Origin: a virus
IMG/VR virus record: IMGVR_UViG_3300034142_000033
Span: 1 to 51,570 of that record
Direction: 5' to 3' (one strand)
DNA length: 51,570 bases
A program made the translations under genes and the position numbers. Position 1 is the stretch's first letter; every line of letters begins with the position of its first letter. The notes below the pieces were generated by a model that saw only the letters and a list, made by a program, of their open reading frames with translations, made no database searches and was not told the origin of the DNA. Below are positions 1-49,804 of the stretch, piece by piece.

Positions 1-60
1 GCGCGACCCTCCGACCCTCTCGGTGTAAACGAGATGCTCTACCAACTGAGCTAAGCGCCC
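1..60 (-). tRNA. tRNA-Val(TAC), partial, runs off the window
   Basis: Read on the minus strand from 60, the sequence gives the acceptor 5' strand GGGCGCT, the D arm GCTC/GAGC, the anticodon stem TCTCG/CGAGA and the loop TTTACAC, so the anticodon is TAC (valine). The 3' end lies beyond base 1. The visible T arm is odd: where a T-loop TTCGA is expected the bases read GTCGC, changing two normally invariant positions. This may mean a decayed gene, or sequence error at a contig edge. The prophage lies upstream of the gene, so its promoter would now be phage DNA. Confidence 0.75.
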
Positions 61-65
61 GCGCC
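23..65. repeat. attL core, 43-bp direct repeat
   Basis: It is identical to 49762-49804 and runs from the anticodon loop of tRNA-Val through its 5' end to five bases upstream. Flanking bases differ at both ends, which defines the repeat. The left side continues into the 3' half of the tRNA, so this is the chromosome-left junction. The core covers the 5' half of the tRNA rather than the usual 3' half. Confidence 0.92.
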
Positions 66-191: not shown

Positions 192-497
192 CTACCGCCG
201 CCGCTCCCGCGCCGCCTTCATCGCGTGGAGGAAGCTCACCGTCGGTTCCCAGCCGAACTCGCGGCAGATGCCGTTGAGCGCCGCCCGCGCCGTCGTGCCG
301 CGGCAGACCTTGGTCAGATATTCGCCGTCGTCCGGGCGGGTCGCGGCCTTCCAGAAGTCGCGGTACAGCCACAATTTGTCGGGGTCGGCGCCGGTCGCCT
401 CGTAGAGCCAGGCGAGCGCGAAGCGCAGCAGCAGCGACCGTTCGGCGGGCGCGGCGCCGCAGGTCTCGGCGATCTCGTCCAGCGCCATCAGCGCCAT
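192..497 (-). CDS. Hypothetical prophage protein next to attL
   Basis: This is a 101-residue protein of unknown function. The ATG at 497 is chosen because the extra 26 residues of the longer frame (to 575) are proline- and arginine-rich and look untranslated. The longer start cannot be excluded, since neither has a strong Shine-Dalgarno. The body is predicted mostly helical, with the cluster LLLRFALAWLYEATG and conserved-looking aromatic residues. No signal peptide or membrane span is seen. It is the last minus-strand gene before attL and follows the HTH-nuclease gene by about 140 bp, which suggests an accessory rather than a structural role. Confidence 0.5.
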   Translation of the reverse strand: MALMALDEIAETCGAAPAERSLLLRFALAWLYEATGADPDKLWLYRDFWKAATRPDDGEYLTKVCRGTTARAALNGICREFGWEPTVSFLHAMKAARERRR

Positions 498-635
498 ATA
501 GCCGAGCCGGTCGCCGCCGGCCGCTGAGGCGTGCACTGGCCGTCGCCGCGGCGCCGAGGGAGGAGGGAATCGCACGGGAACGGATATGGAACATCAGCCG
601 TGCGGCGGCAACGTCGAGCGCCAGCTTTGGCCGGA

Positions 636-1124
636 TTAGCGCTCCGAAGGAGCAGGGCCCTGCCGGGCGAGCAGGCCCCGCTCGACCGCGTCGCAGAACA
701 GCCTGATGGCCGGCTCGCCTTGAAGCGCGATCACGTTGGGGGCGCGGCTCATCTGCTCGGCGATGCGATCGCTGTGGAAGCGCTTGACCTCGATCGCGAC
801 GCCATGCTGCGGCAGGTAGAAGTCGAGCCCGGTCGCCGTGCCGCCGCCCTGGTCGGTCTCATACTCGACGCCGGCGCGCTGCAGCGCCCGCTCGACCAGC
901 TGCTCCATCGGGTCGCGCGTCCTGAGCGGCGCGTCGACCGGATAGGGATCCGGGATGCTCTCGCTGCAAAGGGTGGAGATCGCCATCGCGGTCCTCGGCT
1001 TGATCGGCGCGACGCCGCGCTCCATCTGGCCGATATAGTCGCGGCTGAGGCCGAGCCGCTCGGCCAGCTCGCTTTGCGACAGGCCCAGCGACCGGCGCGT
1101 CTCTCTTAGCTGTGCGGCGTCCAT
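636..1124 (-). CDS. XRE helix-turn-helix protein fused to a PD-(D/E)XK nuclease-like domain
   Basis: The protein has 162 residues. Residues 5-58 form an XRE/Cro HTH (LGLSQSELAERLGLSRDYIGQ). Residues 73-140 carry a restriction-nuclease-like core: D101 before a strand, then IEVK with E112 and K114, matching D-(x)10-ExK. The ATG at 1124 is preceded by GGAGG five bases upstream; an upstream TTG at 1136 lacks this. The fusion suggests sequence-guided binding by the HTH and metal-dependent cleavage, or an inactive nuclease fold used for binding. Function in defence, immunity or regulation is inference. A 10-bp hairpin (1144-1172) lies just upstream. Confidence 0.7.
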   Translation of the reverse strand: MDAAQLRETRRSLGLSQSELAERLGLSRDYIGQMERGVAPIKPRTAMAISTLCSESIPDPYPVDAPLRTRDPMEQLVERALQRAGVEYETDQGGGTATGLDFYLPQHGVAIEVKRFHSDRIAEQMSRAPNVIALQGEPAIRLFCDAVERGLLARQGPAPSER

Positions 1125-1780
1125 CGCGGCCTCCAAGCCGAAAGGAGAGGCGGGGGTGGAAGCCGCCTCTCCAGTGGTTCAGAAGATCTTCACTGAGAGG
1201 TGGAACCTCAGCCTGATCCTCATTTTGAACCGGAAGAAGATTTTCATCTTCTGTCTCCCGGTTATCGGGGCGGACTATTCCGTTCCCGATAGAGCCCTTG
1301 TACGCACTTACTGCGTATCCGTCAACGGAAATCGACAGCTTCCCGCGCCATCGTCAACGGTTCGTCGCAAATTGGAAGCGGCCCGACTCCATCCGCGAGT
1401 CGAAGCGGGCGCCACGCTGGCCTCGCGGGTTAGCCGCAAATGGGCTGGCTATTGCCAGCGGGTCGCTTAATATAAGAACTCGCTGGTGATTCTGGCTTGA
1501 CAAGTTGGATTTGGCGTCCCTACCCGTCCCGGCCGGGGCCCATAGCGATTTCAGCTTCTTTGTCAACATTGACAAAAGCTCAAATCGGCACATTTTTCAA
1601 CCACTCGTCGCATTTGTCGTTGCCTAAGTCTTATTTTTGGCGTTATCACCGCGCATATAAATCCATGCGGCGGTCGCGGTGGGTTTCCCGCTGGTGAACA
1701 TAGAGAGAACGCCCTTAATCGTTCGGTTACGGTTCAGGCGTACTCGCTTAGAGAGAACGAGGTAGGTTGTGGAGGTTGAT
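1125..1780. other. Structured non-coding region between divergent accessory genes
   Basis: No convincing gene is seen in about 650 bases. Three dyads are present. The first is a perfect 10-bp stem (1144-1153 with 1163-1172) directly upstream of the HTH-nuclease gene. The second is a two-part hairpin at 1228-1263 (outer AACCGG/CCGGTT, inner AGAAGAT/ATCTTCT with loop TTTC). The third is TACGCA/TGCGTA at 1301-1317. Base composition drops in GC from about 1460 onward, continuing into the plus-strand gene pair. It probably holds divergent promoters and operators for both sides. Confidence 0.5.
1559..1576. promoter_or_regulatory. Operator-like dyad TTTGTCAA-CA-TTGACAAA
   Basis: Two perfect 8-bp arms are separated by two bases, and the right arm contains TTGACA, a -35-like hexamer (1569-1574). 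No good -10 is visible at the right spacing, so promoter assignment is tentative. The dyad lies about 200 bp upstream of the plus-strand gene at 1781. It is unlike the GTTAGA operators of the main repressor, so another regulator would bind it. Confidence 0.4.
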
Positions 1781-2017
1781 ATGTCGGAGCACGAGAAAGG
1801 ACACGTCGATTGCCCCTTCTCAGGGCACGACGAGACGTTGATCAATGTTAAGTTTTTCCGGGGTAGCCGGAACGACGTGATCACGGCTGCGGAGATCAAG
1901 GAGCAGGCCCGTTCGGCCGCCCTCCAGCGGAAGCTGGGTACGGCAGCCGTGTCGAGTCGCGCGCCCGTGAGTCCGCATCCTGTCATCAATGTCAGGGAGT
2001 TTGTTGCAAACCTCTGA
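1781..2017 (+). CDS. Small hypothetical protein, lower-GC accessory gene
   Basis: This gene encodes 78 residues. The ATG at 1781 has GGAGG six bases upstream, so it is preferred over the GTG at 1769. No known domain is recognised. The N-terminal part contains a Cys and several His residues (HEKGHVDCPFSGHDE), possibly metal-binding; the C-terminal part is helical then strand-like. Codon use is less GC-rich than in phage core genes. It runs opposite to the late operon and is followed by an intrinsic terminator, then the ImmA/IrrE-like gene, so the two form a separately expressed cassette. Confidence 0.55.
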   Translation: MSEHEKGHVDCPFSGHDETLINVKFFRGSRNDVITAAEIKEQARSAALQRKLGTAAVSSRAPVSPHPVINVREFVANL

Positions 2018-2045
2018 CAGTTCGTCTAGGTTCTGAGAAATAGGA

Positions 2046-2075
2046 GGGCCTATGGAGTGATCCATAGGCCCTTTT
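2046..2075 (+). terminator. Intrinsic terminator or attenuator upstream of the ImmA-like gene
   Basis: A perfect 11-bp stem (2046-2056 with 2061-2071) with loop GTGA is followed by TTTT. It ends 13 bases before the ATG of the next gene. It terminates transcripts from 1781-2017 and, because the next gene has no room for its own promoter after it, may act as an attenuator. Confidence 0.85.
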
Positions 2076-2088
2076 AGTGCAGGACATT

Positions 2089-2700
2089 ATGGACACAGCA
2101 CAACTTATCGAGCACTTCTCTCGCCAAGAGAGCCTGCCTGTCGATGTGAACGACGTGCTTGAGTTGCTAAAAAACAACGGCTTTGATGATGATATCGAGT
2201 TCATTGGTGTCGAGTTCGACGTTGATATTCTGCAAGGCCAGATCAAGTGGGCGCATGGTCACCCTCGGCCATACGCTGACCCGATTCGTTACGTAAATAT
2301 ATATTATCACAAGGGCCACGATTCGGACTGGCAAAGATACATTTGCTGCAAGGAGCTGCTTCACCTTCTTGATCCGGAAAGCGCGCGTACCACTACAGCG
2401 GCCGACATTGATCTCCTGGCCGAGAAGATCGGCCTACCGCCGGAAATGCAAGATCCTCTGAACGACGGATTGGCAACGAATGTGGATCGGGCGGCTGAGT
2501 TTAGGGCGGCGGCTGTGCTTCTCCCCTTCGCTGCCCGCGAAACTCTCCTCCCCTTGTATCCTGATCGACTGTCTATCGATGACATTGCTAGGATGGCGGA
2601 CATCCCTCGCCGGTATGCGGCGTATGTAATGAGCCCATTTTGGCCGACAGTGCATGCTGTGCTGCTGGGAAAGCCCTTGAATCTACACAAACCGGAATAG
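2089..2700 (+). CDS. Degenerate ImmA/IrrE-like (DUF955-type) protein
   Basis: This is a 203-residue protein. Around 88-92 it reads KELLH where ImmA/IrrE metallopeptidases have HExxH, so the first zinc ligand His is Lys while Glu and the second His remain. E137 in the stretch AEFRAAAVLLP matches the place of the third ligand. The following segment with LSIDDIARMADIPRRYAAYV resembles the family's C-terminal HTH-like part. ImmA cleaves phage and ICE repressors; loss of one ligand suggests a binding-only or altered role. Start at 2089 is set by AGGA five bases upstream. Base composition is below that of neighbouring phage genes. The family call is inference from motif spacing. Confidence 0.5.
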   Translation: MDTAQLIEHFSRQESLPVDVNDVLELLKNNGFDDDIEFIGVEFDVDILQGQIKWAHGHPRPYADPIRYVNIYYHKGHDSDWQRYICCKELLHLLDPESARTTTAADIDLLAEKIGLPPEMQDPLNDGLATNVDRAAEFRAAAVLLPFAARETLLPLYPDRLSIDDIARMADIPRRYAAYVMSPFWPTVHAVLLGKPLNLHKPE

Positions 2701-4615: not shown

Positions 4616-5248
4616 CTAGGGCTGTCCGTCGATCACCCGCTCGGCGGCGGACTCGATGGAGGCCATCTGCCGCGCGTGCCCTGCCGCGTCGGCCATGTCC
4701 GGATCGTTCTTCCGGTAGCAATAGCCCTCATAAACCAGCTCGCCGTCCCGGCCCATCGCCGCCAGTTTGATGACGTGCATCTCGGGCAACATCGGGTGAA
4801 ACTGGATGAGGGTGCTATGAGGAGCGCCGTCCCGCGCCAGCGCGATCTGGTCGAGACGTTCGATCTCAGCGACGGCATGGGGATCCAGCTTGTCCAGCTC
4901 GGCGAAGGTTTTTCCCTCTACGTCCTCGCGCGCGTAGCCGAGCGGACCAAAGATCGTGAAGAGCGCCTTCGCGTTCAGCCATGTGATCCGCTTGTGCGTA
5001 TCCTTCGTCCATCGGGCGATCTGGCTATCCTGCGCCTGCTCCATCGCCAGCACGCGCTTCCCCATTGCGGCCAGCGCTGCGTGGCATTCCTTGTCGCGCT
5101 GGCGGAGCGCGTCCACGTCGACACGAAGCCGCCCTATCTCGCTCTCTTCGCGGACAGCCTTCCGGTCCCGCCAACTCGTCATGAAAGCCCACACGCCGCC
5201 CCCGCCCAAGAGCGGGCCGGCAACGGCCATAATCGTCACCGCGTCCAT
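4616..5248 (-). CDS. Membrane-anchored coiled-coil protein with a PAS-like domain
   Basis: A 210-residue protein. Residues 4-25 form one membrane span with short Gly-rich turn (AVAGPLLGGGGVWAFM). Residues 30-75 are charged and helical, likely a coiled coil. Residues 85-190 resemble a PAS fold, with an initial segment like LFTIFGPLGYAREDVEGKTF and the closing strands IKLAAMGRDGELVYEGYCY. PAS domains sense ligands or redox state or mediate dimers. The first part alone looks like phage spanin or holin-associated proteins. Start at 5248 overlaps the stop of the upstream gene (TGATG). The PAS call is inference by pattern. Confidence 0.5.
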   Translation of the reverse strand: MDAVTIMAVAGPLLGGGGVWAFMTSWRDRKAVREESEIGRLRVDVDALRQRDKECHAALAAMGKRVLAMEQAQDSQIARWTKDTHKRITWLNAKALFTIFGPLGYAREDVEGKTFAELDKLDPHAVAEIERLDQIALARDGAPHSTLIQFHPMLPEMHVIKLAAMGRDGELVYEGYCYRKNDPDMADAAGHARQMASIESAAERVIDGQP

Positions 5249-5802
5249 CAATCCGCTCCCCCCGGCTCCGGCGCCAGTAGCGCCTCCCAATCGACCACCG
5301 CCGCCGCCGCCTTCGCGGGCGCATCGGCTGCCGCGGTCACCGCCCGCTTCGCCCCGATCCGCGCGCCCTCGATCGCACTGCCGATCGCCGCCCACATTTC
5401 GGCGGCGGCAATGATCGCCGCCGCGGCATCGCCCGGCGCCGACCCCGTCGCCGCGGCTTCGGCGGCCAAGAAGGGATAGTCGGCGAGATCCGGCGCCTCG
5501 ACCGTCACCCAGGCCCAAGCCTCGGCCTCCTTGCGTTGATAGGTCAGCTCCTGCCCGGGCACCGCGGTGATGAACCGGGTTCGGAACGCGCCGGCCTCCG
5601 CATCGATTCGCGCGTGTAGATCGGCCTCCACGCCCGCCAGCCATGCCGGGTCCGCGACGATCGCCGTCCCGTCCCAGACTGCGCGTTCTGGGCTCAGGCC
5701 CTCTGGCAGCACGCCGAGCTGCTCGATCGCGGCCGGATCGTAGCCGTCGAGCGACAGGACCCACTGCATGGCGCCGGTCGCCCGCTCCCGGATCAGGATC
5801 AT
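5248..5802 (-). CDS. Tail fibre assembly-like protein (DUF4376-type)
   Basis: A 184-residue protein. The N-terminal part begins MILIRERATGAMQWVLSLDGY, and residues about 85-160 (YQRKEAEAWAWV, YPFLAAEAAATG, then an alanine-rich helix) resemble the DUF4376 region found in tail-fibre assembly proteins and tail appendages. Its gene overlaps the tail hub gene by four bases, and it lies between that gene and lysis genes, the usual place for such chaperones. The alanine-rich C-terminus is low in complexity. Assignment is moderate. Confidence 0.55.
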   Translation of the reverse strand: MILIRERATGAMQWVLSLDGYDPAAIEQLGVLPEGLSPERAVWDGTAIVADPAWLAGVEADLHARIDAEAGAFRTRFITAVPGQELTYQRKEAEAWAWVTVEAPDLADYPFLAAEAAATGSAPGDAAAAIIAAAEMWAAIGSAIEGARIGAKRAVTAAADAPAKAAAAVVDWEALLAPEPGGAD

Positions 5803-8372
5803 TCCACCTGCTCCACGTAAAGCTTAAGGCTGAGGTTCTGGGTCGTCGTCGCGCTGCCCGACGACTTCCTGTCGACGATCCGGAACTCGTAGGAGGTAGA
5901 GGCGGTGAGCCCGGAAAGCGTCACCGAAGCGACGTTCAGGCTGCCGGGGATGTTCACCGTCGGCGCCCCCGCTTCGCTCTCCCAGCTCGCCTGGCTCCCC
6001 GTGCGCTCGCTTCCCGGCACATCGGCCCAGACGCCGCTCCCGGTCGTCCGGTACTGGACCTTGAATTGGCAGGTGATCGTCTCCGGCTCGGGCGCATAAT
6101 AGCGCCCGCTAAGGCTGACCTTGATTTTACCGGTGGCGGACGAGCTCAGCGCCACCGACGTGCCGTGCACTGTATAGCTCGTGTAGTTGATCTGCGAACT
6201 GACCGTGCGCGCCGCCGAGACCGTGCCGGCCCCGCCTTCTACCGAGGTCGAGAAGGTGAGCTTCCCCGAACTCGACTGGCCGCCGGCAACGACCGTGTAG
6301 CGGATCTCGCCGGCGTCGGCGCTGATCACATTGAGCAGGATCGAATTGCCCGAGACCGAGGCGGTGCAGCCGATCGTCGAGGTGATCGTGATCGAGGTGA
6401 GGGCGATTGCCCCCGCGCCCTGCTGCGCGGTGAACTTGAACTGCTTCGGCAACTCGCCTGGCTTCGGATCGCCGGCCGCGTCGCATTGCACCTGGTGCGT
6501 GGCGGGGGAGGCCGTCACGAGCACCGGAGACACGCCGTCGTCGCCGGCCGTCCCCGCGGGGCCGAACGCGATGTCGACGAGCTCGGCCGGCACCGCCTGC
6601 AGGATCATGTCGAGCGCCAGCCGGATTCCAGTCGCGACCGTGCGGGCGGCGATCAGCGGCACCCCGTTCTTGAGGTACCGCACGCGGCGGCCGTCATAAT
6701 GGACGGTGAAAAGGTCCGCGGTCGTATAGGTGGTGACGCTCGCCGCCACGATCACGTTGCTCTCGCGGATGTCGACGGTGCCGTCGAACTTCAGGAAAAA
6801 CGAATAGTCGATCCTCGAGGTGCCCAGCGCTCCCGCCGGGGGCGGGTCGCTGTTCAGGCCGAAATAGACGTTGCGGTTGGTCTGCGCCGCCCGGCAGGAG
6901 GCAAAGGCGCCCCCCGTGAACGCCTCCTGGCTGTAGACCGCGGTGTCGGAATAGCTGGTCGCGCCGCTGAGCTTCTTGGCGCTGGTCGGCGACGGCGATC
7001 GCGTGTTCGTGTTCGCGTGCAGGAGCGTGAACTGGCCGGCGCCGCCTTGCACGAACACCCGCCACCAGGCGTTGCTGGTCGCGGGAAGCCCCGGCGGCGC
7101 GTTCCCGGCCGAGGGCGCCGTGTTGACGTAGAGCCAGCTCCAGCCCTGGTCCTGGACGATATGCCCTTCGCGGTAGGTCTCGGCGACATTGTAGGCGCCG
7201 CGGTCGACCAGCGGCGCGGTGAAGGCCACGTCCTGAAGTCCGTGGACGAACCAGCTCGGCTCCGACCCGATCGCCAGCCGCCAGAACGGCGCGTCGACCG
7301 CAACCTGCTCGAACGGCGCCGTAGGGGGCAGGGAAGCCCCCGTGGCGTCGAGCGTCACCGAAGCGGCGTTGATGCCTATCGGAGCCACGAACAACCGTCC
7401 CAGCCAGTCCACACCGGCCACCGCGTTGACGCTCGCAGCGATGCGCTGGATCAGCATCCGGGCGGTCGTCTGGTCGGCAACGTGCAGCGAGATCGGCCAC
7501 GGCCGCGCGGCGTCGAGCGCGTCCATCGAGGCTTCGTCGAACCGGCCGGCGCCGCCGGCGAGCAGCGCGATCCGCTTGATCGTGGCGCCCGGCAGCCGGG
7601 TCCAGCCGTCCGGCCCGGCCTTGTCGCCCTTCACATGGTAGGTGAGCGGCGGCACGGGCGCCGCGCCATGCCTGAGCAGCCCTGCCGCCAGGCACGTTCC
7701 CCACGCGCCGGCCGGGATCGTCGCCGCCACCAAAGCGGCGTAGCTGGCGAAATCGCCGGCCGAGGCCCCGAACCGCACCACTCGTTCGAACGCCGTCTCC
7801 ACCGCATCGATCGCGCCATAGGCCGAAAGCTGCAGGACATTGTTGACGCTGTCGACCATGATGCCGGGGACGAACCGCGGCGCGCCGAGCGCAAGCGGCT
7901 TCGGCTGGCCCTTCTGCCCGGCCTCGCCCTCGGCGCCGCCCGTGCCGGCATAGGTGGCGAGCAGGGGAGCATCGAGCCAGCGATCGTCCACCGCGAACGG
8001 TATCTCGGCCACCCCTTCGGCGAGGTTCGGCTGCGCCAGCACCCTGCCGTCGAACCGGAGCGTGAACCCGCCCCACGCGTCTCCTGCCTTGCCCGTCCAG
8101 ATCCTGAGGCGGGCGTCGGCAAGGATGAACCGGCCGAAGTTAGGCCACGGCTCGGCCGCGATCGACACCGCCGAATCCGGCGTCACGATCCCGCCGGCGA
8201 AGGCGCCCTCGAAGAACTCGTAGCGCAGCGCCGGGAGCTGCGCGATCGCCGGCCACCAGGTCTGCCCGTCGAGATGGCAGACGCGCTCGTCGTCGACGCT
8301 CGAGGCGCGCAGGCTCACCGCCGCGGCCGCGACCGGGTCGTAGCCGTCGATCTGTACGAGGACAGCCGTCAT
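5799..8372 (-). CDS. Tail hub/tip protein with C-terminal fibronectin-like domain
   Basis: An 857-residue protein. The N-terminal 250 residues look like a baseplate hub or tail tip core (Arg-Leu-rich strands, QTWWPAIAQLPALRYEFFEG). The middle (about 400-600) resembles a lectin-like or concanavalin-type jelly-roll (FASCRAAQTNRNVYF, YSFFLKFDGTVDIRE). The last 100 residues have a fibronectin type III pattern ending in SLTLSGL-like and TSYEFRIVDRKS stretches. It probably carries host recognition. The large plus-strand open frame opposite it is a GC-driven shadow. Confidence 0.7.
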   Translation of the reverse strand: MTAVLVQIDGYDPVAAAAVSLRASSVDDERVCHLDGQTWWPAIAQLPALRYEFFEGAFAGGIVTPDSAVSIAAEPWPNFGRFILADARLRIWTGKAGDAWGGFTLRFDGRVLAQPNLAEGVAEIPFAVDDRWLDAPLLATYAGTGGAEGEAGQKGQPKPLALGAPRFVPGIMVDSVNNVLQLSAYGAIDAVETAFERVVRFGASAGDFASYAALVAATIPAGAWGTCLAAGLLRHGAAPVPPLTYHVKGDKAGPDGWTRLPGATIKRIALLAGGAGRFDEASMDALDAARPWPISLHVADQTTARMLIQRIAASVNAVAGVDWLGRLFVAPIGINAASVTLDATGASLPPTAPFEQVAVDAPFWRLAIGSEPSWFVHGLQDVAFTAPLVDRGAYNVAETYREGHIVQDQGWSWLYVNTAPSAGNAPPGLPATSNAWWRVFVQGGAGQFTLLHANTNTRSPSPTSAKKLSGATSYSDTAVYSQEAFTGGAFASCRAAQTNRNVYFGLNSDPPPAGALGTSRIDYSFFLKFDGTVDIRESNVIVAASVTTYTTADLFTVHYDGRRVRYLKNGVPLIAARTVATGIRLALDMILQAVPAELVDIAFGPAGTAGDDGVSPVLVTASPATHQVQCDAAGDPKPGELPKQFKFTAQQGAGAIALTSITITSTIGCTASVSGNSILLNVISADAGEIRYTVVAGGQSSSGKLTFSTSVEGGAGTVSAARTVSSQINYTSYTVHGTSVALSSSATGKIKVSLSGRYYAPEPETITCQFKVQYRTTGSGVWADVPGSERTGSQASWESEAGAPTVNIPGSLNVASVTLSGLTASTSYEFRIVDRKSSGSATTTQNLSLKLYVEQVE

Positions 8373-9198: not shown

Positions 9199-9561
9199 CT
9201 ATCCGAAAAGTTCGTAGGTGGTGGTCTCGTCCTCAAGGCTGAGCTCGATCTTGGCGGCCAGGAAGGTGCCGGCGACATTCTGTTCCGGGTCGGTCGCCGC
9301 GACGCTCGGCACCCCGGACAACGGGTCCGGCCAGACGATCTCGCCGGCCACGGCTGTCAGCCGCCGCCGCTCCACCCCGATCAGCGCCGCCCGCTGCGCG
9401 AGCGCCGCCGCCGCGTCGGCCGCGAGGTCGAACATGCCTTCGGCCGGCGCACCCTCGCCGTCGCGGGCGTTCGGGTACCGGCTCTTGATGGCGGCATTCG
9501 ACCACGTCTCGATGCGGGCGGGGCGGGTCGCGGCCCCGATGTCGGCCGGCAGCGCGGGCAT
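9199..9561 (-). CDS. Small tail protein, hypothetical
   Basis: A 120-residue protein (the upstream 18 residues of the longer frame overlap the tape measure end and are excluded; ATG at 9561 starts two bases before the tape-measure stop at 9563-9565). It begins MPALPADIGAATRPARIETW and contains the pattern RYPNARDGEGAPAEGMFDLAADA. No recognised fold. It lies just after the tape measure, where distal tail proteins sit. It may be a distal tail connector. Confidence 0.6.
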   Translation of the reverse strand: MPALPADIGAATRPARIETWSNAAIKSRYPNARDGEGAPAEGMFDLAADAAAALAQRAALIGVERRRLTAVAGEIVWPDPLSGVPSVAATDPEQNVAGTFLAAKIELSLEDETTTYELFG

Positions 9562-9562
9562 C

Positions 9563-12500
9563 TCAGCCGCTCCTCGCGAAGCCGCGGTTGGCGCCGATGA
9601 ACGCCCCACCGCCACCGCCGCCGCCCAGGAGCGCGGACATGGTCCGGTTCAGCACGTCGAGCTGATTGCTCACCTGGTTGAGCAGCTCGTTCGCGCCCGC
9701 GGTGTTCTTCGCGGTCGCTTCGGTGAACGGGTCCCTCGGCTTGGAGATCGGCACCGCTTTGTCGATCTTGTCAATCGCCTGGCCGGTGGCATCCTGGATG
9801 AGGTCCATGCCCTCGAAGAACTTGCCGGTCGAGCCGTAAAGCTGCCGCTCGATGTCGAGCCAGAGCTGGGCCGCCTCCTGATACTTCGCTTGGTCGATAT
9901 TGTCGCCGGCCGCGATCTTGTCGAGGAACGGATCGAGCGCCGCCCACGCCTTCGCTTCCTGGTCGCGCAGCGAGTGCGGGCTGGCCGGCCCGAAATCGAG
10001 GCTCTTGAGGAAGTCCTTGAGCCCCTGCGACGCCGCCGGGATGTTCTCTTTGATCTCCTCGAGCTGGATATTGTAGAGCTTCTGGGCGTCGGCCATTTCC
10101 GCGGCGCTCGCGCTCCCCTCCTTCAGCGCCGCCACCGTCTTGGCCCAGTCGGCGTTGAGCTCGTCGATCGCCGCGCCGACAGGATCGAAATGCGCCTTGA
10201 GCAGCTTCGGCACTGCCTGCACCCGCAGCACCTTGTCGATCTGCGCATCGATGTCCTTGCCGGCCTGCAGCAGTCGCTTCTGGGTGGCGTTGAGCCCCCC
10301 GATCACGCCGTCCCGGATAGCCTCCTCGATGGCGTAGCGGATCGCCGCCTCCTGGTCCTCGCCGAAGTCGATCGCGCCCCTCTTGCGCTTGGTTATCCCT
10401 TGCCCGGTCGGGTCCACGCGCCAGTCGCCGTCGCGCACGCCGATCGAGACCGAGCCGCGCCCGGTCACGATACCGCCGAGCGCCTCCGCGATCCGGTTCA
10501 AGGTATCGGCAACCGTTCCCATCGCCCCGCTGGCCGCCGTCACGCTCTTGCCGCTGTTGCCGGCCGTCCATCCGACGCCGAGCGAGCCGCCGCCCGCGCC
10601 CAGCGTCGCGCTCCCTTTTTTATCGCCCAGCACCGCATTCGCGAGCAGTGTCCCGACCGGCCCGAGGAACTGGCCGAGGATGCCGCCGCGCTGCTTTATC
10701 CCGAGCACGTCGTGCATCACGTCGCTCGCCATCATCGCCGCGCCCAGATAGGGCATAGCCGAGCCGATGCTCCCGAGCATCCCGGCCGCCCCGCCGGCGG
10801 CGGCGCCGCCCGGGCCCGAGGCCGCCACCCCCATCCCGGCCAGCATTTCGTCGAGCGACGCGCCGCCGCCATAGGCGATGTCGTGCCCGTTCCCGGAGCC
10901 CCACGTCGGCAGCGGGAAACCGCCGCTGGCGCCGCCGGCTTGACCCTGCCCAGCACCGAGCAGCCAGCTCAGCGGGTTGCCGCCTCCCTGGCCGGCCGGC
11001 GCGTTGTTGATCTGGCCGAGGATGCTGCCAAGGCTCGTCGACTGCCCTGACAGCAGCGCGATCGCCCATTGCGCCGCCAGCTCGGCGATGGCGCGGCGGC
11101 CCATCTTCTCGAAGTCGTCCCAGATCGAATCGCCGCCGCTCTCGAACGCGTCCTCGAAGAAATCGGCGAGGCCGTCGACGCGGTCCTCATATTCCTTTTG
11201 CTGATCCTCCCAGAACTGCTCCTGCTGCTCCATCGCCTCGGCGGCGCGGTCCTGCATCTCTTTCCACCGCCGCTCGCCCTCACGCGTGATTTCGAGCCCG
11301 TCTTTCTGCGCCTGGCTTATCTTCGCCTCGGCGCGGGCAACGGCCTCGGTAGCGGCGGCGCGTTCACTGAGCGTCTTGGTGAGGTCCTCAGCGATGCCGA
11401 GCTGCGCCACCATCGCCGCATAGGCTTGCTGGCGCTCCTGCCGCTCGGCTGCCGTGAGGTCGCTCGCCTCGCCGGCCATGCCGACCATCTCCGCATAGGC
11501 GGCGGCCAGCCGGTCGAAGGTCGCCAGTTGCGCCGTCACTTCGGCGCTGACAGCCGATTCGGCTTTTCGCCGGTCCTCAGGCAGTTTCGCCAGCTGCTCT
11601 TCGGTCTGTGCGCGGATCTGGGCGATTTGCTTTTCGGCCGCTGCCTCGGCCTCAAGGCCCTCGACGCGAAGATGTGTGGCGTCGAGGCTCGCGACCTGCT
11701 TCTCGAACGTGTCCGACACGGCGTCTGTGACGTCCCGCTGGACCTGCTCCAGCCGCTCGGCAGCCGCGACTTGAGCCTGAATCGCCTGCTCGCCGGCCGC
11801 GAGCGCATCTGTGGGGAAGACGCCCTTGGTAGGGTCCACCGACTTGGCGCCTTGCCGCACCTCATAGTGCAGATGCGGCCCCGTGCTGTTCCCGGCGCCG
11901 GGAGCGCCCTTGGCGCCACCACTATAGCCGATCACCTGCCCCTGCTCGACCCATTGTCCTGGTTCGACAGCAAAGCGGCTGAGGTGCGCATAACGCGTGC
12001 TGGTGCCCCGCCCGTGGCCCATCTCGATGAGATTGCCGAACGCCCCCCGCTCCGCGGCGATCTCGACGATACCGGCCGCCGCCGCGCGTATGGCGGTGCC
12101 GACTTCGGTTTTGATGTCGATGCCGGCGTGACGGTGCCCGGGCCGGGGCTCATTGTAACGCCCGGTAATCCCACCCTCGACGGGGCTGACGAACTGGGTG
12201 AGGTCACCGTCCGGCCGGGACTTCTTTCGGCCCTCGCGCTCGGCGTCCCGTGCAGCTTTGACCTCGGCGTCCCGAGTCCTGGTGATCTTTTCCAGCTCGG
12301 CCTTATACTCGCTGTCGTCGATCTGCTTCGCGCGCCGCTGCAGCCTCAGACGCTTTTGAGCCTCGGCGAAGCGGTCGGTCGCCGCCGCCGCCGCGTCGAG
12401 GCCGGCCGCGACTTCCCGGTCGAGGATCGGGAGCTTGAAGGTATTCGCCGCCCCAGCCGCTTTGACGATGGCCCTATCGAGCGTCTCGATGTTGGCCTCG

Positions 12501-31073: not shown

Positions 31074-31916
31074 TCACGCGGCCTCTCCCGCGCACCACAG
31101 GCCGCACTCCGCATCAAATTCCTCGGTCGGGTCGTCCGGCCCGAACATATCGGGGGAGCGGGCCACGTCCTCGGCGAGCTGGGCGTAGCGCGTTCGACGG
31201 TCGAAGAGCCGCCCGTCCTGCTCCTTCTCCACCCACCAAGGCGACAGGGCTGGGCGCGCCCGCATCAGCGAAGCTCGAAGCCGAGCGCCTTTCATGAAGC
31301 AAAGGTCGCAGTTGCCCTCCCCCGGCTCTAGCCCAAGGTCGAAAGGCTGTTCGGACCAGAAGGCCATCACATCGCGCCGAGTGACGCCAGCGCGGGACAG
31401 CGGAGCAAGGCACGTCCGGTTCTCGTCGGCATTGCGACCGATCATCTTGGCGACGCGCCACGGCTCATCGGCGCGGAGACCAACGACCTCGGAATAGGCG
31501 GTCAGCCCCTGAGCGCGCATGTAGGCGAACATGACCAGCACCTTGAGGAAGCTGGTACACCACCGGGCCTGCCAGTTCGGGAGCGCCTGCTTGCGGGCGA
31601 TCAGGAGATCGAACGGTTCCCCTCGCCGCGAGGCCGTGTCGAATCCGACTTCCTCGAAATCGACGGTATGGCCTCGGTGGCTCCGATATTCGAGCCAGTG
31701 AACCCGCACCCCCCAGCGGGTCTCGCACTCGTGAACGAAGCGCAGCGTCTCCTCGCGCTCCTTGCCGGTGTTGGCGAAGCAGACGTGAACGTCATCGGGC
31801 AGCTTGCCGTGATAGGCGCCGAGGATGTGCCTGAGCATGTAACCCGAGGTTCGGCCGCCGCTGAAGCTGATGAGCGCAGGCCCATCTATCCTGTACGGGT
31901 TCGGGTCATCCGCCAC
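31074..31916 (-). CDS. PAPS reductase/PP-loop ATP pyrophosphatase-like protein
   Basis: A 280-residue protein. The PP-loop signature is SFSGGRTSGYMLRHIL (residues 17-32), followed by VHVCFANTGKEREETLRFV, the usual family strand-helix, and a C-terminal cysteine pair (CDLCFMKG, CGLWC). The family activates ATP for sulfation or thiolation chemistry; phage members have no fixed role. It sits among DNA-methyltransferase genes, so base or backbone modification of phage DNA is possible. The GTG start overlaps the preceding gene. Confidence 0.8.
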   Translation of the reverse strand: MADDPNPYRIDGPALISFSGGRTSGYMLRHILGAYHGKLPDDVHVCFANTGKEREETLRFVHECETRWGVRVHWLEYRSHRGHTVDFEEVGFDTASRRGEPFDLLIARKQALPNWQARWCTSFLKVLVMFAYMRAQGLTAYSEVVGLRADEPWRVAKMIGRNADENRTCLAPLSRAGVTRRDVMAFWSEQPFDLGLEPGEGNCDLCFMKGARLRASLMRARPALSPWWVEKEQDGRLFDRRTRYAQLAEDVARSPDMFGPDDPTEEFDAECGLWCAGEAA

Positions 31917-48451: not shown

Positions 48452-48731
48452 CCTGCTCACCTCGGCCGAGGCCGCCCGGCGCATCCGGGTCAGCACCAAG
48501 ACGCTGCGGCAGCTGCGGCGCGCGGGACATATCCGCTATGTCGCCGTGACCGAGCGAAAGCTGCTATATCGTCCCGAAGATTGCGACGACTTCATCGAAT
48601 CGCGCGCCAGGAAGGACGTGCCGTGTCCGTCTACAAACCGAAGAACTCGCCCTACTTCCAGTTCGACTTCGTATGGAAAGGTCGTCGCGTTTACGGCTCG
48701 ACAGGCTGCCGGAACCGGCGCGACGCGCTAG
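48441..48731 (+). CDS. Excisionase/MerR-like HTH DNA-binding protein
   Basis: A 96-residue protein from ATG 48441 with GGGGAGG four bases upstream. Residues 4-55 form the excisionase HTH (LLTSAEAARRIRVSTKTLRQ, LRRAGHIRYVAVTERKLLYR). The tail after residue 60 overlaps the integrase start by about 109 bases in another frame and is Ser/Thr-rich, so functional part may end earlier. Position before integrase fits Xis. Confidence 0.78.
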   Translation: MVADLLTSAEAARRIRVSTKTLRQLRRAGHIRYVAVTERKLLYRPEDCDDFIESRARKDVPCPSTNRRTRPTSSSTSYGKVVAFTARQAAGTGATR

Positions 48732-49726
48732 CCTATGAGGCGCGCGAGCGTCACAAGCTGCTGCTCCCGGCGAAGGAGCGCCCGCCGATCACCGTCGATG
48801 AAGCCTGCGGCCTCTATCAGGACAAGGTCGGCGACCAACCGAGCTGGCCGACCACGCGCTACATGCTCCAGTCGCTGATCGACGGCCTCGGCGCCGGCCG
48901 CCTGCTGTCCGACGTCGGCCAGCGCGACCTCTTGCATTTCTTCTCGCGCCGCCGCGCCGGGCCGGGCGGACGCATCCGCTCCAACGCCACCATCAACCGC
49001 GAGATCGAGAATGCCCGCGCCGTCTGGCGCTGGGCGGCCAGCGCGCGCTACGACGTCGGCGAGATGCCCGATTGGGGCGCGCTGATGCTGAAGGTGCCGG
49101 CCAAGGCCCCCCGCGAGCTCAGCGCGGCCGAGGAGCCCCGCCTGTTCGAGGAGATCCGCGAGGACCTGGTCGACTTCTGCCGCTTCGCGCTGAAAACCGG
49201 GTGGCGCAGGGCCGAGCTGCTCGGCCTGCGATGGGCCGACGTCGATTTCGGCGCAGCGATCGCTGAGACCCGGATCAAAGGCGGCGACATCGTCAAGCGG
49301 CCGCTCACGCCCGAGATGGTGGCGATCGTCGCTGGGCAGCCGCGCGTCGGTCCGTTCGTCTTCACCTATGTCTGCCGCGTGTCCAAAAGCCGCTATGTCG
49401 ACAGGCGAGGGCGCCTTCAGCCGGCTAGGCGCAAGGGCGAGCGTTATCCGCTGACCGCGACCGTGCTCCGCAAGCCGTGGGCCGCGGCCAAGGCCGCCGC
49501 CGGCGTCGAGGCCTTCCGGCTCCATGACCTGCGCCACACCCGCGGCACCCGGATCCTGCGCGCGACCGGCAATCTCGTAGCCGCCAAGGAGGCGCTGAAG
49601 CACCGCAGCATCAAGACGACGATGCGCTACGCCCACGCCTTTGACGACGACGTGCGCCGCGCGCTCGAGGTATCCGACTCCCGGTCTATTCCCGAAGCCG
49701 CTCCGGCCGACCGTCGAAAAGCCTAG
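48623..49726 (+). CDS. Tyrosine recombinase integrase
   Basis: A 367-residue protein from GTG 48623, with AGGAAGG upstream. The N-terminal SAM-like and core-binding part begins VSVYKPKNSPYFQFDFVWKG; the catalytic residues follow: R in TGWRRAELLGLRW, HxxR in LHDLRHTRGTRIL, H in LKHRSIKTT and the tyrosine in TTMRYAHAFD. Ends 35 bp before attR. It recombines phage and host at the tRNA-Val repeat. Confidence 0.95.
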   Translation: MSVYKPKNSPYFQFDFVWKGRRVYGSTGCRNRRDALAYEARERHKLLLPAKERPPITVDEACGLYQDKVGDQPSWPTTRYMLQSLIDGLGAGRLLSDVGQRDLLHFFSRRRAGPGGRIRSNATINREIENARAVWRWAASARYDVGEMPDWGALMLKVPAKAPRELSAAEEPRLFEEIREDLVDFCRFALKTGWRRAELLGLRWADVDFGAAIAETRIKGGDIVKRPLTPEMVAIVAGQPRVGPFVFTYVCRVSKSRYVDRRGRLQPARRKGERYPLTATVLRKPWAAAKAAAGVEAFRLHDLRHTRGTRILRATGNLVAAKEALKHRSIKTTMRYAHAFDDDVRRALEVSDSRSIPEAAPADRRKA

Positions 49727-49761: not shown

Positions 49762-49804
49762 GTGTAAACGAGATGCTCTACCAACTGAGCTAAGCGCCCG
49801 CGCC
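49762..49804. repeat. attR core with tRNA-Val 5'-half fragment
   Basis: The 43 bases match 23-65. The tRNA part (49762-49799, minus strand) stops after the anticodon loop; the 3' side then reads phage DNA. It holds the original 5' end of the tRNA next to chromosomal upstream sequence. Confidence 0.93.

What the first reader, a model, noticed from the sequence alone, without database searches (positions are those of the whole stretch)
192..2700. Left-end accessory cassette: HTH-nuclease fusion, low-GC small gene, attenuator and degenerate ImmA-like protein
Four genes with no structural role lie between the lysis genes and attL. Two of them run against the late operon and have lower GC, with their own terminator. 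A nuclease-like regulator and a protease-like protein with lost metal ligand near an att site resemble defence or phage-competition loci. I do not recognise the combination.
Basis: inference. Interest (0 to 1): 0.6.

Follow-up and report, generated by a model that had tools for sequence, protein, structure and literature searches.

The report
Transposon-borne gene pair in a prophage
At one end of a bacterial virus genome sits a pair of genes that jumping DNA elements carry between bacteria; the pair belongs to no described family, and its layout suggests, without proof, a toxin with its antidote.

Summary
The four genes exist as described, between the lysis genes and attL of a ~49.8-kb prophage (43-bp exact att repeat), but they are not one cassette.

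Genes 1-2 (192-575; HTH-nuclease 636-1136) share the phage's GC and late-gene strand. HTH-nuclease relatives occur in other (pro)phages without genes 3-4.

Genes 3-4 (1781-2017, 2089-2700) are a separate, lower-GC two-gene module. The same adjacent pair, in the same order, occurs in all 14 loci where both genes could be read, one of them held out. In three it lies inside a complete IS1595-type transposon, in one inside a complete IS1-type element. The window keeps a scrap of IS1595 transposase beside it.

The 'degenerate' ImmA-like protein is not decayed: KExxH instead of HExxH stands in 12 of 13 aligned relatives, with an acidic residue at the presumed third-ligand position in all. The terminator between the genes recurs in 7 of 14 loci with different stems.

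Best reading (inferred): a toxin-antitoxin-like pair, with the small protein as antidote in excess and a metal-free ImmA-fold protein as effector. No family in Pfam, NCBIfam, PHROGs or PADLOC matches either gene.

The parts
23..65 (.). attL core, part of a tRNA-Val gene; exact copy at 49762-49804 (attR)
   Evidence: 43-bp exact repeat, integrase next to attR
192..575 (-). Phage accessory gene of unknown function (unit A, not part of the module)
   Evidence: GC 73%, strand of the late genes; no family; a relative (38% over 56 aa) lies near the lone nuclease in L003
636..1136 (-). HTH (residues ~7-57) fused to a PD-(D/E)XK-like nuclease domain (residues ~75-155) (unit A)
   Evidence: HTH_3 E 1e-11; D..E.K invariant in five relatives; same fusion in L006 and L014
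1144..1172 (-). GC-rich hairpin between leader peptide and HTH-nuclease gene
   Evidence: 10-bp perfect stem, -20.2 kcal/mol; hairpins at the same place in L006 and L014
1179..1247 (-). Short basic leader peptide ORF, MKIFFRFKMRIRLRFHLSVKIF
   Evidence: 29-aa counterparts with VKFHLSLKI upstream of the fusion genes in L006 and L014
1411..1470 (+). Remnant: C-terminal codons and stop of an IS1595/ISXO2-type transposase
   Evidence: 74% over 19 aa, E 0.008; 80% over 46 nt, E 7e-5; same position relative to the module as in L012
1781..2017 (+). Module gene 1: 78-aa small protein (presumed antidote); a GTG start at 1769 is possible
   Evidence: Paired with gene 2 in 14 of 14 loci; third codon positions diverged far more than positions 1-2
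2046..2075 (+). Intrinsic terminator-like hairpin between the two genes
   Evidence: 11-bp perfect stem + T4; counterparts in six other loci; 3 compensated pairs in four sequences
2089..2700 (+). Module gene 2: ImmA/IrrE-like protein, KExxH in place of HExxH, acidic D133 (presumed effector); a GTG start at 2077 is possible
   Evidence: KExxH and acidic position conserved; IrrE/PprI are the top PDB fold matches of a low-confidence model

Best explanation
The finding merges two unrelated things. Genes 192-575 and 636-1136 are phage accessory genes. Genes 1781-2017 and 2089-2700 are a two-gene cargo module of small DDE transposons (IS1595/ISXO2-type and IS1-type), most likely brought into this prophage by an IS1595 element that has since decayed. 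SHOWN: an adjacent pair in fixed order, conserved KExxH, a terminator between the genes in half of the loci, and transposon ends with target duplications around the pair in relatives. INFERRED mechanism: a toxin-antitoxin-like pair that stabilises its carrier. Transcription mostly stops at the internal terminator, so the small protein is made in excess; the second, metal-free ImmA/IrrE-fold protein is the effector, made only by read-through and held inactive by the small protein. Loss of the carrier, or a stress that changes the ratio, would free the effector.
For: Pair and order in 14 of 14 readable loci; a profile of gene 1 hits the same 6 of 385 genomes as gene 2, with no stand-alone copy; a held-out genome (G136) again shows the pair. 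KExxH in 12 of 13 aligned proteins at down to about 18% identity. Terminator with T-run in 7 of 14 loci, in every locus with a gap of 66 nt or more, stems compensated. Complete carriers: L012 (27-bp TIRs, duplication AGCGCTTC), L029 (GTCTTACG), L035 (contig ends are the TIRs), L060 (IS1-type, CGCTGGAC). Transposase scrap in the window. Phages with a related endolysin carry HicAB (L048) and a HigBA-like pair (L045) beyond their lysis genes. Precedents: an internal terminator sets the ratio in ToxIN (PMC5772629); TA pairs are recurrent cargo of Tn3 transposons (PMC7157771).
Against: No toxicity, neutralisation or binding was tested. Neither gene matches a known toxin or antitoxin family, and the small protein shows no DNA-binding domain. 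Half of the loci lack the terminator. The terminator in the window has only four T. No TIR was found around the window copy, so its carrier there rests on a short transposase scrap.
Confidence: 0.45

Rival explanations
1. Regulatory pair: gene 2 is a non-proteolytic ImmA-like anti-repressor or sensor that acts with the small protein to control the transposon or its host phage, not a toxin.
For: ImmA-type proteins act on repressors of mobile elements (PMC2701414); Rir of Streptococcus thermophilus inactivates its repressor without cleaving it (PMC7907104). IS1595-type carriers also encode a DUF6471 protein and a coiled-coil/HTH-like protein. The C-terminal part of gene 2 looks helix-turn-helix-like (my reading).
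Against: The pair also stands without any visible transposase (L013, L016, L017, L023, L034) and is carried by two different transposase families, as cargo would be. The small partner has no HTH hit, and no shared operator was found upstream.
Confidence: 0.27
2. Anti-phage or superinfection-exclusion cargo: the pair blocks other phages, with abortive infection as the outcome.
For: Patchy, mobile distribution on prophages and transposons; toxin-antitoxin pairs such as ToxIN act this way (PMC5772629).
Against: No PADLOC match; no clustering with known defence genes was seen in the loci read; not tested directly.
Confidence: 0.15
3. Neutral relic: the window copy is left-over transposon DNA without function in this prophage.
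For: The transposase is reduced to about 20 codons and no TIRs remain.
Against: Both ORFs are intact, with a perfect hairpin, and codon positions 1-2 are conserved against third positions in every pairwise comparison with relatives, including those with the window copy.
Confidence: 0.1
4. One reading: all four genes form one accessory cassette.
For: They are neighbours in this one prophage.
Against: Relatives of genes 3-4 lack genes 1-2 and relatives of gene 2 lack genes 3-4; GC is 70-73% against 53-60%.
Confidence: 0.03

Closest known systems
ImmA/IrrE (COG2856, peptidase M78) with Xre partners
   Same: Predicted fold (IrrE/PprI top PDB matches), Glu and second His of the motif, acidic residue at the presumed third-ligand position, two-gene operon on mobile elements
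   Different: First His is Lys throughout; no Pfam match; the partner is a small protein without a recognised HTH and lies upstream, mostly behind a terminator or a short gap
Type III toxin-antitoxin ToxIN
   Same: Short first element, intrinsic terminator, then the effector gene
   Different: The first element here is a conserved protein gene, not RNA repeats; gene 2 is not a ToxN-type RNase by any family match
Type II toxin-antitoxin pairs carried by Tn3 transposons
   Same: Two-gene pair as recurrent cargo of DDE transposons, apparently captured more than once
   Different: Other transposon families (IS1595, IS1) and no known toxin or antitoxin domain
IS1595-family elements with passenger genes (such as tISCpe8, MTnSag1)
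   Same: ISXO2-type transposase with zinc ribbon, terminal inverted repeats, 8-bp target duplication, passenger genes
   Different: The known examples named in the papers read carry resistance or mobilisation functions; this cargo pair was not found described

Membership tests
ImmA/IrrE (COG2856/M78) metalloprotease | HExxH metal-binding motif | tested here: not met
   KExxH in 12 of 13, KExxS in one
ImmA/IrrE (COG2856/M78) metalloprotease | Acidic third metal ligand | tested here: inconclusive
   D/E in all aligned proteins 13 residues before the LLP-type proline; assignment to the ligand rests on recall of the M78 motif
ImmA/IrrE (COG2856/M78) metalloprotease | Fold | tested here: inconclusive
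   Top matches IrrE/PprI, probability 1.00, but E 0.009, TM 0.49 and a low-confidence model
ImmA/IrrE (COG2856/M78) metalloprotease | Sequence match to the family profile | tested here: not met
   No Pfam or NCBIfam hit for the window protein and no M78 hit for five relatives at E<=1
ImmA/IrrE (COG2856/M78) metalloprotease | Xre-type repressor as partner | tested here: not met
   Gene 1 and four relatives have no HTH hit
Type II toxin-antitoxin system | Adjacent two-gene pair | tested here: met
   14 of 14 readable loci
Type II toxin-antitoxin system | Toxin neutralised by its antitoxin | not testable with these tools
   Needs expression experiments
Type II toxin-antitoxin system | Known toxin or antitoxin domain | tested here: not met
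   No Pfam, NCBIfam, PHROGs or PADLOC hit of weight
Type III toxin-antitoxin (ToxIN) | Terminator between first element and effector | tested here: met
   7 of 14 loci including the window
Type III toxin-antitoxin (ToxIN) | RNA-repeat antitoxin | tested here: not met
   First element is a protein gene with selection on codon positions 1-2
IS1595-family transposon (carrier, in L012) | DDE_Tnp_IS1595 transposase, terminal inverted repeats, 8-bp target duplication | tested here: met
   E 2e-38; 27-bp perfect TIRs; AGCGCTTC on both sides
IS1595-family transposon (carrier, in the window) | Terminal inverted repeats and target duplication | tested here: not met
   None found; only a transposase scrap
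PD-(D/E)XK nuclease (gene 636-1136, C-terminal domain) | D..(E)xK catalytic motif and fold | tested here: inconclusive
   Motif invariant in five relatives; PDB fold matches cover only the HTH; DpnII-MboI Pfam hit only E 0.1
Known anti-phage defence system | Match to a system-specific PADLOC model | tested here: not met
   Generic HTH hits for gene 2 only; otherwise E 0.01 or worse

The most novel reading that the evidence does not exclude
A new family of toxin-antitoxin-like modules spread by IS1- and IS1595-type transposons and phages, whose effector is a metal-free ImmA/IrrE fold in which a conserved Lys replaces the first zinc ligand (KExxH plus an acidic residue), with the ratio of the two proteins set by an internal terminator.
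Probability: 0.3. Interest if true: 0.72.

Novelty: new variant of a known kind. Interest (0 to 1): 0.55.

Why it matters
If the inference holds, an undescribed family of mobile gene pairs is carried by small transposons and phages of alphaproteobacteria. It reuses the fold of a stress-response protease (ImmA/IrrE) without its full zinc site, so it would show how a regulatory protease becomes a metal-free effector. It also offers a clean, testable case of why small insertion elements carry passenger pairs. The conserved order, motif and terminator make each step testable in ordinary laboratory strains.

Tried and rejected
Viral-contig scans with the single proteins of genes 3 and 4 found nothing, and searches of plasmids and phages found no relative of gene 4; genome searches around a Sphingomonas genome opened the case. 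Pfam, NCBIfam, PHROGs and PADLOC gave no name for genes 1, 3 or 4. Weak hits for the small protein (XPB_C 0.01, GajA 0.01) were judged chance: small stretch, none in relatives. A search for TIRs plus target duplication around the window module gave only GC-rich pairs of the kind expected by chance. A palindrome TTTGTCAA-CA-TTGACAAA upstream of the module looked like an operator but has no counterpart in relatives. PDB sequence searches found no relatives of either module gene. Rfam found only the att tRNA. A link to a Caulobacter GTA-related immune system was looked for in the paper and not found. The order-wide search around G403 gave no new member.

Full report
WHAT IS THERE. The window is a whole viral record of 51,570 bases holding a prophage. 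attL (23-65) and attR (49762-49804) are exact 43-bp copies of part of a tRNA-Val gene, and the integrase (48581-49726) abuts attR. GC falls from 70-73% in the first two to 59.5% and 53% in the last two, with 50% in the spacer before them.

NOT ONE CASSETTE. Relatives of the HTH-nuclease were found in Sphingomonas azotifigens (L006, same fusion, near an integrase and a tRNA-Arg), in a second genome (L014, same fusion, near an integrase and a tRNA-Ser) and as a lone nuclease domain in viral contigs L003, L004 and L005. None has genes 3-4 beside it. Genes 3-4 were found in 13 other loci, none of which showed genes 1-2. The title's combination is therefore a meeting of two units.

THE TWO-GENE MODULE. 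A search of 299 genomes with gene 4 gave a 62%-identical relative (G283) and a distant one (G264). In both, the ORF just upstream is a relative of gene 3 (66% and 25% identity; the distant one shares the motif IKFF and its place). Profiles from these found two viral contigs, five more genomes in a class-wide draw of 385, one more viral contig and genomes G805, G981 and G1006. G1006's copy is cut by a contig end and is not counted. In every locus where both could be read, gene 3 lies directly upstream of gene 4; in one of them (L032) gene 4 has an apparent early stop (my reading). A profile of gene 3 run on the same 385 genomes hit the same six genomes; two extra hits are weak and inside long ORFs. 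Recovery of the six is partly by construction, since those loci fed the profile; the absence of lone copies is not. G136, which fed no profile, again shows gene 3 upstream, KELMH and an acidic residue at the expected place. Codon positions 1 and 2 are far more conserved than position 3 in both genes, so both are real genes under selection.

CARRIERS. In G283 (L012) the module lies in a 4,308-bp element with perfect 27-bp terminal inverted repeats and the 8-bp target duplication AGCGCTTC, inserted between what read as the two parts of a comM/Mg-chelatase-like gene. It encodes an IS1595-type transposase with zinc ribbon, a DUF6471 protein, an unknown 293-aa ORF and a coiled-coil/winged-HTH-like protein. 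IS1595 elements usually make 8-bp duplications (PMC8101967). L029 has the same organisation with duplication GTCTTACG. L035 is a contig that begins and ends with the TIRs, as expected for a collapsed multicopy element. L033 looks like a 1.1-kb derivative with imperfect ends and target repeat that keeps the module and a DUF6471 fragment. A second carrier type has an IS1-type transposase downstream and a PKGPKGEKRPADIIG-type gene upstream: L030, L031 and G136. In G136 (L060) the ends GGTAGTGTCTCA(C/G)TTT and the duplication CGCTGGAC are intact. Elsewhere no transposase is visible: between prohead protease and capsid genes of a GTA-like cluster (L016), next to a terL (L034, L023), next to a serine recombinase (L017), beside tRNA-Arg (L013) and in L032. 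In the window, 1411-1470 matches the last codons of the L012 transposase at the corresponding position (74% of 19 aa; 80% of 46 nt, E 7e-5). The window copy therefore most likely arrived with an IS1595 element that has since decayed; no TIRs were found around it.

THE TERMINATOR. A perfect hairpin with a T run lies between the two genes (2046-2075). Counterparts stand in L012, L016, L017, L029, L034 and L035 with different stem sequences. In the four closest sequences three base pairs changed on both sides in some sequence while pairing was kept. All seven loci with a gap of 66 nt or more have it; the other seven have gaps of about 8-40 nt and no T-tailed hairpin. The T run in the window is short, so termination there may be partial; the tool's own terminator scan scored the hairpin on the minus strand only.

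THE IMMA-LIKE PROTEIN. No sequence family matches. The predicted structure has modest confidence (mean pLDDT 66, pTM 0.68), and its best PDB matches are IrrE/PprI (E 0.009). Among 12 aligned relatives the HExxH position reads KExxH in 11 and KExxS in one (L035); the thirteenth, held out, is KExxH. The residue 13 places before the proline of the LLP-type motif (D133 in the window), where M78 proteins have their third metal ligand as I recall the family, is D or E in all. The loss is thus specific and conserved: the first His is a Lys. A metal-free, binding-type protein is the simplest reading. ImmA-like proteins that work without cleavage are known (Rir, PMC7907104).

MECHANISM. Shown: the pair, its order, the motif, the terminator and the carriers. 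Inferred: the small protein is the antidote and the ImmA-fold protein the effector, with the terminator keeping the antidote in excess, as it does in ToxIN (PMC5772629). Circumstantial support: phages with a related endolysin carry HicAB (L048, E 3e-21 and 6e-16) and a HigBA-like pair (L045, both hits below the curated cut-off) beyond their lysis genes, and toxin-antitoxin pairs are recurrent cargo of Tn3 transposons (PMC7157771). The main rival is a regulatory, anti-repressor-type pair. I put about 0.9 on the anatomy and 0.45 on the toxin-antitoxin reading.

THE PHAGE-NATIVE GENES. The HTH-nuclease gene is preceded by a short basic peptide ORF (window 1179-1247; 29-aa counterparts containing VKFHLSLKI in L006 and L014) and a GC-rich hairpin. 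This second attenuator-like arrangement is seen in all three fusions known here. The nuclease relative in L015 lies beside an SRAP gene (E 4e-26), and L003 appears to have one too, which may point to a DNA-repair link.

Noticed in passing
window 1144-1247 (-); L006 ~5690-5806; L014 ~9440-9600: A conserved short basic leader peptide (..[VR]KFHLS[LV]KI..) and a GC-rich hairpin precede the HTH-nuclease gene in all three fusions found: a second attenuator-like arrangement.
   Followed up: partly
L015 6635-7625; L003 ~5084-6243: The lone PD-(D/E)XK-like domain lies beside an SRAP (SOS-response-associated peptidase, HMCES-like) gene in L015, and apparently in L003, which may point to a role in DNA repair.
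   Followed up: partly
L016 3454-4348; L034 6150-7051: The module sits inside or beside gene-transfer-agent-like clusters: between prohead protease and capsid genes (L016) and directly after a terL (L034).
   Followed up: no
L035 1-3850: A contig that is exactly one IS1595-type element from TIR to TIR, which suggests several copies in that genome and recent activity; its gene 2 has KExxS.
   Followed up: no
L012 10698-11129; L029 5862-6287; L035 (minus strand, inner right end): A coiled-coil/winged-HTH-like protein without a Pfam family is a regular companion at the right end of the IS1595-type carriers.
   Followed up: partly
window ~1559-1576: Perfect palindrome TTTGTCAA-CA-TTGACAAA about 210 bases upstream of the small gene; operator-like, but not seen in relatives.
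   Followed up: partly
window 31074-31916; L005 4385-5290: A PAPS-reductase-like gene (FSGGRTS motif, by reading the sequence) is in this phage and also lies just upstream of the lone nuclease in L005.
   Followed up: no
L019 912-1130; L020 ~914-1135; L059 2321-2512: A small PKGPKGEKRPADIIG...AEARW-type gene regularly precedes the module in the IS1-type carriers; no Pfam match.
   Followed up: partly
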